Origin: Spongiibacteraceae bacterium
GTDB taxonomy: Bacteria; Pseudomonadota; Gammaproteobacteria; Pseudomonadales; Dasaniaceae
Direction: 5' to 3'
Assembly (NCBI GenBank): GCA_028280715.1
Contig: JANQLG010000033.1
Location: 62,001-126,000 of the forward strand
DNA length: 64,000 nt
Each line of letters begins with the position of its first letter. Positions within the stretch are counted from its first letter, which is position 1. The translations under genes were made by a program, and so were the position numbers. Of this stretch, positions 33,905 through 41,115 are shown piece after piece. The notes beneath the pieces were generated by a model. That model saw nothing but the letters and a program-made list of their open reading frames with translations. It was not told the origin of the DNA and did not search any database.

Positions 33905-34894
33905 ATGATAGAGCGGATTAGGCAGCGATTCCGTCGGCGCTACGAAGCCTGGATGAAAAATCGGCTTCCTCCGGTAAGAAGTGTCACTTTAACCCAACGC
34001 CGTATTTTCATTTTTCCTTCCCGGCAAGGCCTATGGTTTTTTGTATTGCTTGCGGCAATGTTGTTAGCTGCAATCAATTATCAAAATAATATGGTTTTCA
34101 TGCTGACGTTTTTGTTGTTCAGTATTTTTATCGTAACGATCTTACATACCTACGCAAATCTTTCGGGGTTAACAATAAGTGCCATAAAAGCCGTGCCTGC
34201 TTTTGCAGGCGATCGAGTGGAATACGAAATTTCACTGAGCAGAGAAGGTAATAAGAGTTACTACGATATTAATCTGTTTTGGCCAGATACTGAGGTGGCG
34301 ACGGTAACCTTAGACAAACATAGTGAGCAACGAGTCAGATTACATGTACCAAGTAAAAAGAGGGGGTTACTGAATCCCGGACGGTTAAAAGTTGAGACTT
34401 CTTATCCTATTGGTCTATTGCGAAGTTGGACGTGGATTACATTAGACTTGGAAGCGCTAGTGTATCCAAGACCCATGAAATGTGACTTGCAGGCGACATC
34501 CATCTCCGACTCTGATGACGGAGATGTTACAGCGGTAGTTGGCAGTGATGACTTTTATGCGTTTCGGTCTTATCAGCAAGGGGACCCACTAAAACACGTG
34601 GCATGGAAAAGTTACGCTAAGGGACAATCCTTGCATACTAAACAATTTGCAGCCTATTGTGACCAGCGGCTCTGGTTAGATTGGGATCAATTCACTGGTG
34701 ATATGGAAAGTCGACTTAGCAAACTCTGCTATTGGGTGTTAAAGATTGAGCAGTCTGATGATGAGTATGGAGTTAAGCTCCCTGGCTTTATTCTAGAGCC
34801 AGCTAATGGAGAGCGTCATCAGCAGCAAGCACTAAGAGCACTGGCTTTGTTCAATACTATAGGTCATTTAAAAAACAGGGGGTCTGCGTCATGA
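33905..34894 (+). CDS. DUF58 domain membrane protein
   Basis: This 329-residue protein has two adjacent membrane segments (about 40-85) and a C-terminal DUF58 domain, with the hallmark DDFYAFRSYQQGDPLKHVAWKSYA. ATG 33905 is preferred; GTG 33896 lies one base after the GGAG site. The stop overlaps the next start (ATGA at 34891), so it is translationally coupled to the transglutaminase gene. The MoxR-DUF58-TgpA trio is conserved in Pseudomonas relatives. Confidence 0.9.
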   Translation: MIERIRQRFRRRYEAWMKNRLPPVRSVTLTQRRIFIFPSRQGLWFFVLLAAMLLAAINYQNNMVFMLTFLLFSIFIVTILHTYANLSGLTISAIKAVPAFAGDRVEYEISLSREGNKSYYDINLFWPDTEVATVTLDKHSEQRVRLHVPSKKRGLLNPGRLKVETSYPIGLLRSWTWITLDLEALVYPRPMKCDLQATSISDSDDGDVTAVVGSDDFYAFRSYQQGDPLKHVAWKSYAKGQSLHTKQFAAYCDQRLWLDWDQFTGDMESRLSKLCYWVLKIEQSDDEYGVKLPGFILEPANGERHQQQALRALALFNTIGHLKNRGSAS

Positions 34895-36903
34895 GTGTTT
34901 CCTGGCAAGTTCCTCGAAATTGTCTGGTCTGGGCGATGATGTCACAAGTCGCTTTGCTTCTCCCTCACGTCCAGAGATTGCCTTGGTGGATGATGTTGGC
35001 TTATGTCATCTGTGCGCTCTGGCGAATTATGATATATCAAGGCCGCTGGTCACTGCCGCCTAAATTCTTAAAAAGTATTTTGGCTGTCGTTTGTTGTGCG
35101 GGTATATATTTATCCTACGGTTCTTTTATAGGTTTAGAGCCTACCATTGCATTGTTATTCAGTGGTATGTTTCTTAAGTTGCTAGAGCTCAATATGAGGC
35201 GTGATGTTTATGTATTGATATTTTTATCTATCTTTGCCTCGCTGACGGCTTTTTTATTTTCACAAAATATCGGGATAACACTTTATATCTTCCTTGCTTT
35301 ACTAATGGTAGTCACTTCACTGGTGGCACTTCATCAGCATGATTTAACTCGCCTAAGTATTAACAGTTTGAAAAAAACAGCAGTCATTTTTTTGCAGGCT
35401 GTGCCACTGATGGTTGTGTTGTTTATTATTTTTCCGCGTTTTGAACCTTTTTGGACGGTACCTTCTCCATCTCAGAATGCCAAAACTGGTGTTAGTGAAA
35501 CCATGGGACCAGGTGATATATCCAATTTGAGTCAAAGCGGAGAATTGGCATTTAGGGCGGTTTTTAACAGCGTCGTACCAACAAGAGAGGACATGTACTG
35601 GAGAGGGTTGGTGTTGTCTAGGTTTGATGGCAGAGTCTGGCATCAGGGTCGAAATACAAAACGCTTGTTCTCTCAATCCGAGGTGAGTCAGTTAAAATCT
35701 GCTACGAATATTGATTATGACTATACGATCTTTCTGGAGCCGACGCATCAGCGCTGGTTATTTTCACTACCCCTGGCATTCAGTGATGAACGTTTAGTCA
35801 GAATGAGTTCAGATTACCGGCTGATTCGTTTAAATCCAGTCAGTAACCGTATCAAATACCGAGTTCAGTCTGATGAGGGTGCTGTAATTGATAGAGAATT
35901 AGTCCCATATCAATTACAGCGGGAAATATTTTTACCCGCTGGAAGTAACCCTGAGACCAGACTTTGGGCGCAGCAGTTGTATCTTTCGTCGGAGGATAAT
36001 GAAGCCTTTATTAATGCTGTGCTTAAACACTTTCGCAGCGAGCCCTTTTACTACACATTGCAACCGCCATTGTTAGGTGAACACACTGTTGATGAATTTT
36101 TATTTCAAACCAGGCAGGGGTTTTGTGAACACTATGCAAGTAGCTTTGTATTTATTATGCGTTCAGTCGGGATTCCCGCACGTGTGGTTACAGGTTATCA
36201 AGGAGGGGAAATTAACCCGCTAACAGGCACAGTTTTGGTCCATCAGTACGATGCGCATGCCTGGGTTGAAGTATGGTTACCTGAAAGAGGCTGGACAAGA
36301 GTGGATCCTACAGCGGCTGTTTCGCCCTTGCGTATTGAATCAGGATTGGAGGCTGCGCTAGCGGCTTTAGAACAAGGCTTTTTATCAGATTCTGTTTTTT
36401 CACCACAGCGTTATCGTTATATTCAGTCATTGAACTATCTATGGCTGCAATTAGATGCAATCAATTATTACTGGATTAGCTTTGTATTAGATTTTAATGA
36501 CGAACGCCAAGTTGATTTTCTAAAAAAGCTGATTGGAGATGTGACTCCACTAAGAATTGCTATGTTATTGATTTCAGTCGGTGGCATCGTTTTGTTATTA
36601 GTAGCGATGCAATTGCTTAAAGGAAGAACAGGAGAAAAAAGCAGTCCGGAGTCAGTGCTCTACCTGTCAGTGTGCAGGAGATTGGCTAAGGCAGGTTATC
36701 CTAGGTCTGATAATGAAGCCCCGATAGATTACTGTCGTCGTATTATTGAGCTTAAGCCTGAGTTGTCTCAGCATCTTCAGGCTGTGACTCGTACATATGT
36801 TACCTTAAGTTATGAATCCTACCCGAGGGAACAACGAAAGCACCTTATTTCCCAATTGAGGAATGAAACTACCAAGCTGAGTTATCAACTAAGGGCAATT
36901 TAG
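34891..36903 (+). CDS. tgpA: TgpA-like membrane transglutaminase (DUF3488 + transglutaminase-like)
   Basis: This 670-residue protein has several N-terminal membrane segments (about 10-185, DUF3488), then a periplasmic transglutaminase-like domain with the catalytic triad Cys412 (GFCEHYA), His456 (DAHAWVEVW) and Asp472 (RVDPTAA), another membrane segment (about 552-575) and a cytosolic DUF4129-like tail. TgpA of Pseudomonas aeruginosa is an essential protein of this type, thought to act in the periplasm. The start overlaps the DUF58 stop. Confidence 0.9.
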   Translation: MSVSWQVPRNCLVWAMMSQVALLLPHVQRLPWWMMLAYVICALWRIMIYQGRWSLPPKFLKSILAVVCCAGIYLSYGSFIGLEPTIALLFSGMFLKLLELNMRRDVYVLIFLSIFASLTAFLFSQNIGITLYIFLALLMVVTSLVALHQHDLTRLSINSLKKTAVIFLQAVPLMVVLFIIFPRFEPFWTVPSPSQNAKTGVSETMGPGDISNLSQSGELAFRAVFNSVVPTREDMYWRGLVLSRFDGRVWHQGRNTKRLFSQSEVSQLKSATNIDYDYTIFLEPTHQRWLFSLPLAFSDERLVRMSSDYRLIRLNPVSNRIKYRVQSDEGAVIDRELVPYQLQREIFLPAGSNPETRLWAQQLYLSSEDNEAFINAVLKHFRSEPFYYTLQPPLLGEHTVDEFLFQTRQGFCEHYASSFVFIMRSVGIPARVVTGYQGGEINPLTGTVLVHQYDAHAWVEVWLPERGWTRVDPTAAVSPLRIESGLEAALAALEQGFLSDSVFSPQRYRYIQSLNYLWLQLDAINYYWISFVLDFNDERQVDFLKKLIGDVTPLRIAMLLISVGGIVLLLVAMQLLKGRTGEKSSPESVLYLSVCRRLAKAGYPRSDNEAPIDYCRRIIELKPELSQHLQAVTRTYVTLSYESYPREQRKHLISQLRNETTKLSYQLRAI

Positions 36904-37084
36904 CTTGAGTACCTATCCTTTGAATTGTCAGATTTTTGATCATCAAAGTACAGTTATGACATAAAGAGTATTACCTAAGCGATAGAAAATTTGTCGATAA
37001 TTTTGGGAAACTTAGCGATAAATTTAAAAAATACCTGAATTTACTGCTTTCGGGGTCATTAACCACTAACTTTCTACAACTGTC

Positions 37085-37300
37085 TTATGCACAACGATAA
37101 ATCTGTTATGAGTCTAAGTGTCAAATCCTCGGCAGTGATACTGTATATGCATACAAATTGCATAACTAGCTGATAAATAAGGTATTTTTTGCTGGTTAAA
37201 AAATAATCAATTTGATGTGAGGAGCATATTGTAGGGCATTTCCGGCTTTTTCTTAATGGTTATCCACTAATTTATCCACAGATTTTGTGGATAAATTAGT
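37085..37300. promoter_or_regulatory. cluster of DnaA-box sequences in a 479-base non-coding gap
   Basis: The gap 36904-37382 lies between two genes that point toward each other. It holds TTATGCACA (37085-37093) and TTATCCACA (37272-37280), both full matches to TTATNCACA, its reverse complement TGTGGATAA (37286-37294), and TTATCCACT (37259-37267, one mismatch). The last two perfect boxes face each other inside a 15-bp perfect inverted repeat (37266-37280 / 37286-37300, 5-base loop). The gap is AT-rich and I see no gene in it. Possible roles are DnaA titration or reactivation, or an origin-like site; the hairpin could also end transcription from either side. Confidence 0.6.
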
Positions 37301-37382
37301 AATAGTTTCATAATGCTTAAATAATATTGTAATGAGAAAAAGTTGTTACAGTTTTGTAGCAGATGTGAAAAAAAGTATCAGT

Positions 37383-40280
37383 CTAATTTTGATGAGAGAC
37401 CGCCTTACTTAGTAAATCTGTTAGATTGCTTAGGGATATTGGCTTGGTTAAGTGTCCATCCATACCTATTGCCTCGACTCGCTCTTTGAAGTCACTCTGG
37501 GCATGAGCGCTGATAGCAATGATATTAACCCGCTTCCTTTGGTTTTCCTGTTCTTTGGCGCGTATCTGTGCAGCGGCCTGGTAGCCATCCATTTCTGGCA
37601 TTTCGCAATCCATAAGAATCAAGTCGTAGTCATTGGCTTCGTATTTTTGGATGGCTCTAAGGCCATTTTCAGCAACATCCGCTTCTACGCCGATTTGCTT
37701 AAGCATATTGGCGAGAATAAGCTGGTTGACCTGATTATCATCAACGATAAGAACCTTCAGGTCATGGTATTTTTGCTCTTCACTAGGTTCCATGACCGCT
37801 TGTGCCGCCTTAGGGGGTAACGTTGCGCGTAGAAGGACATCATGTAGCTGGCTGTTAGTGATGGGTTTCTCTAATACAATCCGAATGCCTAAGCTGGCCA
37901 AGTCATCGTGTTTATCCAGCAACTGCGTTGCAGCCATCAGCACAAAGGTGGCTGAGGATAACTGACGTTTGCGTATCTCTTTCAGTAGATCCAGGCCACT
38001 GGCACTTTCGAGATTATATTCCGATAAAATGACATCGAAGGGTTGGTCCTGTTCTGCAGCGCTTTCTAATGTGCTGATTGCGTCCTCCAAGTTGGTGCAA
38101 AGAGTTGTATCGATCTTCCAAGAGGTGAGTAATCGTTTGACAATATCAGCTGATACAGTATGTGAATCCACAAGCAGTAATTTTTTATCCGCTAATTGCG
38201 ATGAGCGTTTCCGAATTAATTCTGGTGCTGGATTTTCTTCGTTCATTAGCCTGGCAGTGAACCAGAATACTGAGCCAACGCCGGCTTCGCTGTCGACGTC
38301 AATGTGTCCATCCATTAGTTCAGCAAGCTGCTTGCTAATGGCCAAACCCAGCCCGCTGCCACCATATAGACCATAAGCATCTTCATCAGCATGTTGGAAT
38401 GGCGTGAAAAGGCGCTTTTTTTCTTCATTGGTTAGGCCGATACCACTGTCTTCCACAGAAAACTTAAGCTCAGTGCAATTGATTGCTGCTTTGTCCGTAG
38501 CTCTGACCTTAAGTATGACATCGCCTTGATCGGTAAACTTAAAGGCATTGCTCAGCAGATGAAGGAGAATTTGTTTTAATTTGCCCGCATCGCCACAAAA
38601 TACCTGGTCAAGATTGGGGTCGATATCGGCGATAAAGTTAATATGTTTTTCTACGGCTTTGAGGGAGAAGATAGAAATACAGTCATCAATCAGTGCTTCC
38701 AAGTTAAAGCTGGATAGTTCCAGTTCCATCTTGCCTGCTTCAATTTGAGTGAAGTCCCGTAAATCATTAATGATTGCTACCAGATCCTGGCTGGAGTGCT
38801 CGATCATATTGAGGTAATAGTTTTGCTTTTCATCCAGCCGCGATGCCTTCATTTTGTCCGTCATGGTTAAAATACCATCCATAGGCGTTCGGATTTCATG
38901 ACTCATTGTGGCTAGAAAGTCGCTCTTTGATTGATTTTCCAACCGTGCTTGACTGGCTGATTGTTCGAGTTCAATGAGTTTTCGTTTGGAATTGTAAAGC
39001 TCGGCTTCAGCTTTCAGTTTACTCTCGTTGGCTTTGAGTATGCTTTCATTGCCTTCATCAACCTCTTTTTGTAACTGGTTAACTCTATCTGCCAGGGCGA
39101 GTGAGAAAAATACCAACATAGCTGTCAGCCCTAGGGCAGGTAGACTGTCGGTAATCCCAGTACGAGAAATGAGTCCTAGTGAGGCCATGGCGCTAATCAG
39201 CAGGGCAAAAATCAGTATCATAATGGCGATAACAAAATGCCCTGCAGAAATAACGCCTTTGCGACGAATCACAATACCCGCACAGAGTGCGGTAATCAGC
39301 ATTGCTCCGGTGCTAAGTATTGATAATAAAATAAGTGTAATACTGCTAGTGACAGAAGCAGTGATTAATAGGCCTACGGTAATGATGGCCAGCCAGCGGA
39401 TCGCCCAAAGAAATTTCCTAGTGCGTCTGCGTAGATTCAGAAAATAAATAGTGAACTGGCCAAATAATAGAATATAGAGAGAGAAAAAAACTGTCTGTAG
39501 CGCTATTTTGTTCCACTGGCTGTCAGGGGCAAAATATTGGTATAAGTGACCCTGGCTGGCAGAGACCAAGTAGATAGAGGTCATAGCATAGAGCACATAA
39601 AAGCCATAACTTTTATGATGGGTGGATAAGTACAGAAATAAATTATAAAGGGCGACGACAAATAAAACGCCGTAGATGAATCCAGCCACTAACTGCATTT
39701 CAAGATCCCAGGTATTAAACGCTTTTGGATTCCATAGGGTGGCGCGAAATTGCAGGGCTGGTTCGTCTTCAATCAACCAAATTAAGGTTATTTCGTCATT
39801 GGCTGGAATTGTGATCTCGCTTAACAGGTGTCGGTGTAAAATGGGTCGGTTGTTGAATGGGCTATCTAAACCAGCGCCTTCGAACAATGTAGTTACGTTA
39901 CCGGTACTGGATAGAATGTAGAGATCGGCTGTTTTAATACTGGGGTATTCGGTTTGTAAAATAAAATCGACAGCGTGATCTGAGGTATTGGCGATTTGAG
40001 TCCGTAACCAGTACCTACCCGCATCCAGAAAGAGGGTGCCATGATGCTGGTCGCTGGCTGACCAGGGCATCATACGGCTGCCTCTGGTTAAATATTCAAC
40101 GGTTAATGTTTGTTCGCCATCATAAAAGAATTCGATATGTGCATTTAATGGCTGATATTGAAGGTTACCATCAACTTCGATCCTACCTGCCTCAACAACA
40201 GCACTGACAAATAGTTGAAATAAAATAACAAGAAGTAATGCGGGTTTAGTTGATTGGGTCACTGGCGTCTCGTGAAACAC
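37383..40280 (-). CDS. hybrid sensor histidine kinase with 7TM-DISM sensor and two receiver domains
   Basis: The 965 residues read in order: signal sequence (to about 31), periplasmic 7TMR-DISMED2 sensor (about 35-180), seven membrane segments (about 195-398), a coiled coil (400-450), HisKA with His461 ([15 protein letters not shown]), HATPase with DSGIG and [10 protein letters not shown], then two receiver domains. The second receiver is complete (Asp847/848, phospho-acceptor Asp891 in [13 protein letters not shown], Lys946). In the first, the acceptor position is Glu754 (VILSEYNL) and the acid pair is reduced to DS (705-706), so it is probably not phosphorylated. No response regulator gene is adjacent. 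Confidence 0.92.
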
Positions 40281-40424: not shown

Positions 40425-40491
40425 CTGCTGATTAAAATAACAGTCTATCTATGACTGACAAATGTATCAGAGGATCTATCAGGGGAAAAGA

Positions 40492-41115
40492 ATGAAGCAG
40501 GCATTTGTGACCATGCTGGATATGCAGGACAAAATGAACCACAAAGTGCATGAGCAATGGATTTCGCAAAATTACGAATGGTATCGAGCTATTTGGATCG
40601 AGTGTGGAGAGCTGATCGAACATTACGGTTATAAATGGTGGAAAAAACAAACGCCTGATATGGATCAGGTGCAGCTGGAAGTCATAGATATCTGGCATTT
40701 TGGTATGAGTGCGTTATTTCGAGAAGGTGTGAGTCAGGATCAATTAGCGCAATCGATGGCTGATGCATTAGAGGGTTATAGTTACAGTGGTGTCGATGTT
40801 CGTACTGCGACAGAAGCATTGGCAGAAGAGAGTTTGCGTACTAAAAATTTTTCGGTTCCTCTATTTTGGGATTTATTACATGCTGTGGAGCTGACCTTTG
40901 ATGAGCTTTATCGTCAGTATGTCGGAAAAAACGTGTTGAATTTTTTCCGTCAGGACAATGGCTATAAAGAGGGCACTTATATCAAGCAGTGGCAGGGAAG
41001 AGAAGATAACGAGCACTTGGTAGAAATTCTTTCCGATCTAAACCCCAAAGCTAGCAGTTTTGCCGATGATGTTTATCAGTCGCTTCAAACCCGTTACCAA
41101 CAACTAACCAGTTAG
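40492..41115 (+). CDS. dimeric dUTPase (dUTPase_2 family)
   Basis: This 207-residue all-helical protein belongs to the MazG-like dimeric dUTPases, which hydrolyse dUTP (and dUDP) and keep uracil out of DNA. The metal and substrate motifs are WYRAIWIECGELIEHYGYKWWKK (read as WYRxxxxECxEL ... KWWKK) and LEVIDIWHF, followed by NFFRQDNGYKEGTY. ATG 40492 has AGGGG upstream; the frame is open back to 40462. This family is typical of phages and some bacteria and is unrelated to the trimeric Dut. Next gene starts 13 bases later. Confidence 0.88.
   Translation: MKQAFVTMLDMQDKMNHKVHEQWISQNYEWYRAIWIECGELIEHYGYKWWKKQTPDMDQVQLEVIDIWHFGMSALFREGVSQDQLAQSMADALEGYSYSGVDVRTATEALAEESLRTKNFSVPLFWDLLHAVELTFDELYRQYVGKNVLNFFRQDNGYKEGTYIKQWQGREDNEHLVEILSDLNPKASSFADDVYQSLQTRYQQLTS

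What the first reader, a model, noticed from the sequence alone, without database searches (positions are those of the whole stretch)
37085..37300. DnaA-box cluster with a 15-bp palindrome in a non-coding gap between convergent genes
Seen: three perfect TTATNCACA boxes and one with a single mismatch lie within 216 bases, with two perfect boxes facing each other inside a 15-bp inverted repeat. The gap (36904-37382) separates genes that converge, so it needs no promoters. Known: such clusters titrate or reactivate DnaA (datA, DARS) or mark origins. Inference: this is a DnaA-binding locus, more likely a titration or reactivation site than oriC, because no dnaA, gyrB or mnmG gene is near and GATC sites are almost absent.
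Basis: partly seen in the sequence, partly recalled or inferred. Interest (0 to 1): 0.72.

Follow-up and report, generated by a model that had tools for sequence, protein, structure and literature searches.

The report
DnaA-reactivating site (DARS), rearranged variant
A 210-base non-coding stretch between two genes looks like a "recharging station" for DnaA, the protein that starts chromosome copying; such sites are known from E. coli and its near relatives, but this one has a differently ordered layout that is also seen in many related bacteria.

Summary
Boxes at 37260(+), 37272(+) and 37286(-) start 12 and 14 bases apart: the order, orientation and spacing of DnaA boxes III-II-I in the E. 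coli DARS1 and DARS2 cores. The 35-bp core pattern (up to 3 mismatches) occurs in 78 of 95 genomes of the order and 304 of 370 of the class (own genome included in both); the reversed pattern in 0 of 95 and 3 of 370. In 125 cores from the order, IHF sites are seen there in 77, Fis sites in 42 and the box in 44, against 0-10, 0-1 and 0-5 in slid controls. The own genome holds a second copy beside queD with the same layout. The order core-Fis-IHF-box differs from E. coli DARS2 (core-IHF-Fis-box V): a new variant of a known kind. Biochemical activity is inferred, not shown.

The parts
37085..37294 (+). Whole element: proposed DARS-type DnaA-reactivating site (distal box - IHF - Fis - core), oriented from distal box to core
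   Evidence: Architecture in nine aligned loci; order-wide positional statistics
37085..37093 (+). Distal DnaA box TTATGCACA, 175 bp upstream of the core
   Evidence: Perfect TTATNCACA on the same strand at -174 to -177 in 9 of 9 loci; 44 of 125 cores in the order have a perfect + box at -182..-166
37163..37175 (-). Candidate IHF site TAACTAGCTGATA (1 mismatch to YAANNNNTTGATW), at -97
   Evidence: 77 of 125 cores in the order have a site with at most 1 mismatch at -104..-92, against 0-10 in slid controls
37194..37208 (.). Candidate Fis site GGTTAAAAAATAATC, at -66 (2 mismatches to GNTYAAAWTTTRANC; 0 to the looser GnnYAnnnnnTRnnC printed in PMC8682772)
   Evidence: 42 of 125 cores have at most 2 mismatches to the strict form at -70..-62, against 0-1 in slid controls
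37260..37268 (+). Core DnaA box III, TTATCCACT (1 mismatch)
   Evidence: same offset (12) as between boxes III and II in E. coli DARS1/DARS2
37272..37280 (+). Core DnaA box II, TTATCCACA (perfect)
37286..37294 (-). Core DnaA box I, TTATCCACA (perfect), head-to-head with box II across a 5-bp spacer
   Evidence: PMC5742627 passages (box I opposed to boxes II and III)
37266..37300 (.). 15-bp inverted repeat around boxes II and I; the 6 extra pairs outside the boxes are not shared by the other aligned loci
   Evidence: extra pairs: 6 here, 0 or 1 in the other 8 loci
34891..36903 (+). Left neighbour: TgpA-type transglutaminase
   Evidence: PF11992, PF01841, PF13559
37383..40280 (-). Right neighbour: hybrid histidine kinase (7TMR-DISM, HisKA, HATPase_c, receivers), convergent
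   Evidence: homologue in the same place beside the core in G002, G004, G005 and G054
40462..41115 (+). Next gene: dUTPase_2 family; a homologue directly flanks the core in G001, G006, G008 and G009, with no kinase gene between
   Evidence: Pfam for the G001 copy

Best explanation
The stretch 37085-37294 is a DARS-type DnaA-reactivating element. ADP-DnaA, the spent initiator, binds boxes III, II and I of the core. The DnaA molecules on boxes II and I meet head-to-head, which loosens the bound ADP; nucleotide-free DnaA leaves, takes up the abundant ATP and becomes competent to start replication again. IHF at about -98 bends the DNA sharply. This would bring the distal DnaA box (about -176) and the Fis-bound stretch (about -66) close to the core and so gate the reaction by cell cycle (IHF) and growth phase (Fis). 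Shown here: the box order, orientation and spacing; their conservation; the preferred positions of IHF-type, Fis-type and distal DnaA sites; and the presence of DnaA, IHF-alpha and Fis genes in this genome. Inferred from E. coli work: nucleotide exchange, the head-to-head contact, and activation by IHF and Fis. Inferred from geometry alone: the fold-back of the distal box.
For: Core geometry identical to E. coli DARS1 and DARS2: start offsets 12 and 14, box I opposed (definition in PMC5742627). Core pattern in 78 of 95 genomes of the order (0 of 95 reversed) and 304 of 370 of the class (3 of 370 reversed, read by eye), own genome included in both. Own genome: window 0 mismatches, reversed control 0. 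Nine aligned loci (eight of them in the same gene setting on the right) share the perfect distal box; all nine have an IHF-type site with 0-1 mismatch at -97/-98; 7 of 9 have a Fis-type site with at most 2 mismatches at -65/-66. Features not used in choosing the 125 cores are strongly positioned; at least two of the three occur together in 54 of 125 and in 29 of 87 cluster representatives, against 0-1 in slid controls. With the looser published Fis consensus the -70..-61 bin holds 56 matches, other bins 0-4. Same slot although a neighbouring gene comes and goes: hybrid kinase beside it in five genomes counting the window, dUTPase in four. A second copy sought beside queD in the own genome was found with all four parts, its core at 4 mismatches. 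Host genes: DnaA, Fis at 64% identity, IHF alpha over the curated cut-off.
Against: No activity was measured. IHF and Fis sites are consensus matches only. In the order, 48 of 125 cores lack an IHF-type site, 83 a Fis-type site and 81 a perfect distal box at the stated thresholds; only 18 of 125 have all three. The position windows were set after the histograms on the same 125 cores. G054 has a poor strict Fis match (5 mismatches) and G008 has 3. 17 of 95 genomes have no core match, some of them 99-100% complete. In the one single-contig genus member (G005) the two cores lie about 0.40-0.42 of the genome away from dnaA (positions), not halfway along a replichore.
Confidence: 0.82

Rival explanations
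1. A datA-like titration or inactivation site: the boxes soak up DnaA or, with IHF, promote hydrolysis of DnaA-bound ATP.
For: It has several strong boxes and an IHF-type site, as datA does (PMC5742627 passages). Any strong box also titrates some DnaA.
Against: Titration needs no head-to-head pair with fixed 3- and 5-bp spacers, yet that geometry is what is conserved. The gap holds four boxes of the core and distal set plus two scattered one-mismatch boxes at 36992 and 37364. The datA sequence itself was not compared.
Confidence: 0.09
2. A bidirectional transcription terminator or attenuator hairpin between convergent genes; the DnaA boxes are incidental.
For: The 15-bp inverted repeat folds as RNA at -19.8 kcal/mol, z -4.3, and the genes converge.
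Against: No terminator-like site is found in 36800-37500. The six extra pairs outside the boxes are not shared: 0 or 1 in the other 8 loci. Box III, the distal box and the IHF/Fis sites lie outside the palindrome's two boxes and are conserved.
Confidence: 0.04
3. A replication origin or remnant of one.
For: A DnaA-box cluster with IHF- and Fis-type sites in AT-rich DNA.
Against: A dnaA-dnaN locus with three TTATCCACA boxes is on contig C28. GC skew keeps one sign through the window. The geometry matches DARS.
Confidence: 0.02

Closest known systems
DARS2 of Escherichia coli (near mutH)
   Same: Core boxes III-II-I with identical order, orientation and 3/5-bp spacing. IHF-type site on the same strand about one helical turn nearer (-87 there, -97/-98 here). 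Fis is required there (PMC4245941 passages). A perfect DnaA box lies at -185 there (box V by my inference) and about -176 here. Similar scale.
   Different: The E. coli order is core - IHF - Fis - box V (PMC4245941 passages; the one full match to the looser Fis consensus is at -125, beyond the IHF sites); here it is core - Fis - IHF - distal box. The distal box faces the opposite way. Neighbouring genes differ. E. coli has two IHF-type sites 3 bp apart (-87 and -71); here one. The published FBS2-5 / low-affinity box array was not looked for in detail.
DARS1 of Escherichia coli (bioD-uvrB gap)
   Same: Same core geometry; TTATCCACT occurs as a core box in both (box I in DARS1, box III here).
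   Different: DARS1 needs no trans-acting activators (PMC4245941 section 12) and is only about 101 bp (PMC5742627); it has no perfect distal box, only a one-mismatch box at -197.
datA of Escherichia coli
   Same: Non-coding cluster of DnaA boxes with an IHF site.
   Different: Promotes ATP hydrolysis and is near oriC (papers as quoted); its sequence was not compared here.

Membership tests
DARS (DnaA-reactivating sequence), by its core | Three 9-mer DnaA boxes, box I opposed to boxes II and III | tested here: met
   definition in PMC5742627
DARS (DnaA-reactivating sequence), by its core | Same box spacing as E. coli DARS1 and DARS2 (3 bp and 5 bp) | tested here: met
   offsets 14 and 12 at 408/422/434 (DARS1) and 636/650/662 (DARS2); window 37260/37272/37286
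DARS (DnaA-reactivating sequence), by its core | Non-coding location | tested here: met
DARS (DnaA-reactivating sequence), by its core | Promotes ADP release from DnaA and raises cellular ATP-DnaA | not testable with these tools
   Needs biochemistry or genetics
DARS2 subtype | IHF and Fis sites at set distances from the core | tested here: met
   by consensus only; distances differ from E. coli
DARS2 subtype | Order core - IHF sites - essential Fis sites | tested here: not met
   Here core - Fis - IHF. E. coli order taken from PMC4245941 passages; between core and IHF in E. coli DARS2 there is no strict Fis match at 4 mismatches or fewer and no full match to the looser consensus (one with 1 mismatch at -43)
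DARS2 subtype | Distal DnaA box V in the E. coli orientation | tested here: not met
   Perfect box at a similar distance but opposite strand
DARS2 subtype | Genomic place near mutH (DARS1: uvrB) | tested here: not met
   tgpA / hybrid kinase / dUTPase here
oriC | Beside dnaA/dnaN with a GC-skew switch | tested here: not met
Intrinsic terminator | G+C-containing stem followed by a T run | tested here: not met
   0 found in 36800-37500
datA | datA box set flanking an IHF site; ATP hydrolysis by DnaA | not tested
   datA sequence not fetched; activity not testable here

The most novel reading that the evidence does not exclude
DARS is not an E. coli-group speciality but a feature of most gammaproteobacteria. 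Its widespread form is a compact four-part loop of about 210 bp: distal DnaA box - IHF bend - Fis site - head-to-head core. IHF folds the distal DnaA box back onto the core and Fis sits inside the loop. E. coli DARS2, with its swapped IHF/Fis order and inverted distal box, would then be a rearranged relative with different activation logic.
Probability: 0.45. Interest if true: 0.72.

Novelty: new variant of a known kind. Interest (0 to 1): 0.58.

Why it matters
How bacteria reset their replication initiator is worked out mostly in E. coli (my general knowledge), and the papers seen describe the DARS2 core as conserved in species related to E. coli (PMC4245941; E. coli and seven related species in PMC8682772; a review says E. 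coli-proximal beta- or gammaproteobacteria, PMC5742627). A simple 35-bp signature with a near-zero control rate finds candidate DARS sites in 304 of 370 sampled genomes of the class. In this order many of them carry a different, positioned set of regulator sites. [quoted passage not shown]

Tried and rejected
oriC was rejected: dnaA-dnaN is on contig C28 and there is no skew switch. A terminator was rejected: and the palindrome extension is not conserved. A sigma-70 promoter explanation was rejected: 3 promoter-like hits against 2.6 expected, and the genes converge. No IHF peak at the E. coli distance (-87) was seen in the order; the peak is at -97 to -100. The 3-mismatch core hit at C50:26320 was first taken for the genome's second DARS. 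It lies upstream of a second dnaA gene and is probably an ordinary box cluster of that promoter (its IHF/Fis/distal-box layout was not tested separately); the second copy with the full layout is on C13. A fixed relative distance from the origin, as reported for E. coli (PMC5010248, abstract in the listing only), was not tested beyond G005 (positions). My first guess at the DARS1 coordinates missed it and a first scan of the DARS2 stretch looked at the wrong gap; corrected.

Rows left out of counts: one search printed only part of its matches. I fetched a hand-chosen subset of those listed (100 stretches) plus the automatic loci, before seeing the flanks of those stretches; several listed hits were not fetched. 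From the 131 loci L154-L284 and the window, 126 distinct cores resulted; 1 was dropped for short flanks, leaving 125. These are not independent: 87 clusters at the threshold. Position windows were set after seeing the and histograms; the 30 class loci and the C13 copy were looked at afterwards. The nine loci leave out G006 (its contig starts 62 bp upstream of the core) and include G007, whose flanking genes differ.

Full report
OBSERVATION. The gap between the ORFs ending at 36903 (+) and 37383 (-) is non-coding and lies between convergent genes. It holds perfect TTATNCACA boxes at 37085(+), 37272(+) and 37286(-), and a one-mismatch box at 37260(+); two more one-mismatch boxes lie at 36992(-) and 37364(-). 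A perfect 15-bp inverted repeat spans 37266-37300. Single boxes are only mildly enriched: window 6 against 3.4 expected, 13 of 100 shuffles reaching 6; genome 152 against 92 for the reversed pattern. The arrangement is what is unusual: the facing pair occurs once in the 3.83-Mb genome, reversed control 0.

IDENTITY OF THE CORE. Published descriptions say that the E. coli DARS1 and DARS2 cores hold DnaA boxes I-III, box I opposed to II and III, with the same spacing in both (PMC5742627, passages seen). I fetched both stretches from E. coli K-12 and measured them: DARS1 408(+)/422(-)/434(-) in L153; DARS2 636(+)/650(-)/662(-) in L152. The offsets are 14 and 12. In the window the offsets are 12 (37260 to 37272) and 14 (37272 to 37286): the same core read on the other strand.

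HOW SPECIFIC. The 35-bp pattern TTATNCACNNNNTTATNCACANNNNNTGTGNATAA with up to 3 mismatches accepts E. coli DARS1 (2 mismatches) and DARS2 (3). It is found once in the window and in 0 of 100 shuffles; in 78 of 95 genomes of the order, own included (reversed control 0 of 95); and in 304 of 370 genomes of the class, own included (reversed control in 3 of 370, read from the table by eye). In a sample of the phylum it is in 122 of 249. By my own count of that table, 49 of the 160 genomes outside the class have it: 35 of 39 in a single family (f223) and 14 of the 121 others. The order holds G037, whose contig length equals that of gamma proteobacterium HdN1, which suggests Pseudomonadales; that order name is my inference.

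THE REST OF THE ELEMENT. Cores were chosen by the core pattern alone, so features outside it are independent evidence. Among 125 cores from the order, an IHF-type site (YAANNNNTTGATW, at most 1 mismatch) peaks at -97 to -100, and a Fis-type site (GNTYAAAWTTTRANC, at most 2 mismatches) at -65/-66. With the looser consensus printed in PMC8682772 the -70..-61 bin holds 56 matches and other bins 0-4. A perfect + strand DnaA box peaks near -176. Counts in windows set after these histograms are 77, 42 and 44 of 125. At seven slid positions they are 0-10, 0-1 and 0-5. At least two features occur together in 54 of 125 and all three in 18, against 0-1 and 0. In 87 cluster representatives the figures are 46, 24, 23, 29 and 8. 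In 30 cores from the class outside the order (loci chosen by the tool) the IHF-type matches again peak at -96 to -99 (15 matches), and Fis-type matches with at most 3 mismatches at -65/-66 number 12.

THE SITE ITSELF. In the window these parts are: distal box 37085-37093; IHF-type TAACTAGCTGATA 37163-37175 (1 mismatch); Fis-type GGTTAAAAAATAATC 37194-37208 (2 mismatches to the strict consensus, 0 to the looser one); core 37260-37294. In nine aligned loci the distal box is perfect in 9 of 9. IHF-type sites have 0-1 mismatch in 9 of 9. Fis-type sites have at most 2 mismatches in 7 of 9; the exceptions are G008 with 3 and G054 with 5.

POSITION AND PARALOGUES. The right-hand neighbour is the hybrid histidine kinase in the window (Pfam) and a homologue of it in G002, G004, G005 and G054; it is a dUTPase_2 gene in G001, G006, G008 and G009 (Pfam for G001). 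In the window the dUTPase follows the kinase. The left neighbour differs between the window and the others; G002, G004 and G005 share a small protein there. So the element keeps its slot while genes beside it come and go. G007 is the exception. A second core lies between queD (Pfam PTPS, tested on G002) and a short unnamed gene in G001, G002, G005, G006, G008 and G009; in G003 that unnamed gene is on its right and no gene was seen on its left in the 418 bp held; in G007 queD is on its left but the right gene differs. The own genome showed no such hit at 3 mismatches. I looked beside its queD homologue and found a 4-mismatch core at C13:1144 with a perfect distal box at -177, IHF-type at -98 (1 mismatch) and Fis-type at -65 (2 mismatches).

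HOST FACTORS. The own genome has DnaA, a Fis homologue at 64% identity over residues 24-97 and IHF alpha over the curated cut-off. A shorter DnaA-like hit below the cut-off is present too; that it is Hda is my guess.

MECHANISM. From E. coli work (PMC5742627, PMC4245941, PMC8682772; passages and one section), ADP-DnaA assembles on the core, head-to-head contact at boxes I/II loosens ADP, and the freed apo-DnaA picks up ATP. IHF and Fis are both needed at DARS2. The same reading fits here, with moderate to high confidence for the core and less for the regulators. The fold-back of the distal box by an IHF bend is geometry only: the IHF site lies roughly midway between the distal box and the core.

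DIFFERENCE FROM THE KNOWN. E. coli DARS2 runs core - IBS1-2 - FBS2-3 with box V beyond. The order is read from the translocation experiments in PMC4245941. In the E. coli sequence two IHF-type sites lie at -87 and -71, the one full match to the looser Fis consensus at -125, and a perfect box, which I take for box V, at -185. Here the order is core - Fis - IHF - distal box, and the distal box faces the other way. So the site passes the DARS core test, fails the DARS2 order test, and is filed as a DARS variant. PMC4245941 states that Fis, and likewise the DARS2 core, is conserved specifically in gammaproteobacteria related to E. coli. PMC8682772 compares E. coli with seven related species. PMC6090056 mentions V. 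cholerae (one passage). My library searches listed no paper whose title or abstract start describes DARS in this order; most listed papers were not opened. The library lacks most subscription journals, and the original 2009 DARS paper was not seen. Passages of PMC4585315 and PMC12371093 were also seen and do not treat other species' DARS.

LIMITS. No binding or activity data. Site calls are consensus matches. Most cores lack a strict Fis match or a perfect distal box, and 17 of 95 genomes show no core at this threshold. Relatives are unnamed.

Noticed in passing
G000 contig C50:24461-25831 (L196:1153-2871, -) and its upstream L196:2961-3057: A second full-length dnaA gene (572-aa ORF, 61% identical over 502 aligned positions to the DnaA on C28), with no dnaN-like ORF of 100 aa or more seen by eye in the 6-kb stretch. 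Its recognition helix reads GGRDNTT where the C28 copy reads GGRDHTT; the 514 bp upstream hold TATCCAGAG twice, in imperfect palindromes, TATCCACAG once and no TTATCCACA. It could be a second initiator with shifted box preference, or a contaminant contig. None of the 12 other genomes searched has a second hit over the cut-off.
   Followed up: partly
L152:952-986 (E. coli K-12 DARS2 right half): A degenerate second DARS-like core (5 mismatches) sits 316 bp from the known DARS2 core, with an IHF-type site at -97 (1 mismatch), the same distance as in the order studied here.
   Followed up: partly
G015:C26, G058:C1/C5/C11, G092:C42, G052:C6, G083:C1, G088:C13: Tandem cores on one strand about 144-154, 285-287 or 314 bp apart (start positions), suggesting duplicated or double-loop DARS elements.
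   Followed up: no
G008:C12:253396 and G009:C9:57294 (L199, L201): A third core in two genomes, between a DNA polymerase III delta gene (Pfam, tested on G008) and an alpha/beta hydrolase-like gene (name by eye).
   Followed up: partly
Phylum sample, family f223: 35 of 39 genomes of one unnamed family outside the class carry the core, far above the 14 of 121 in other outside families; either transfer, a related class, or a taxon with its own DARS use.
   Followed up: no
G000 C13:524-867 (L333): The own genome's queD homologue matches with two in-frame stops in the search; a broken gene, a frameshift or an assembly error.
   Followed up: no
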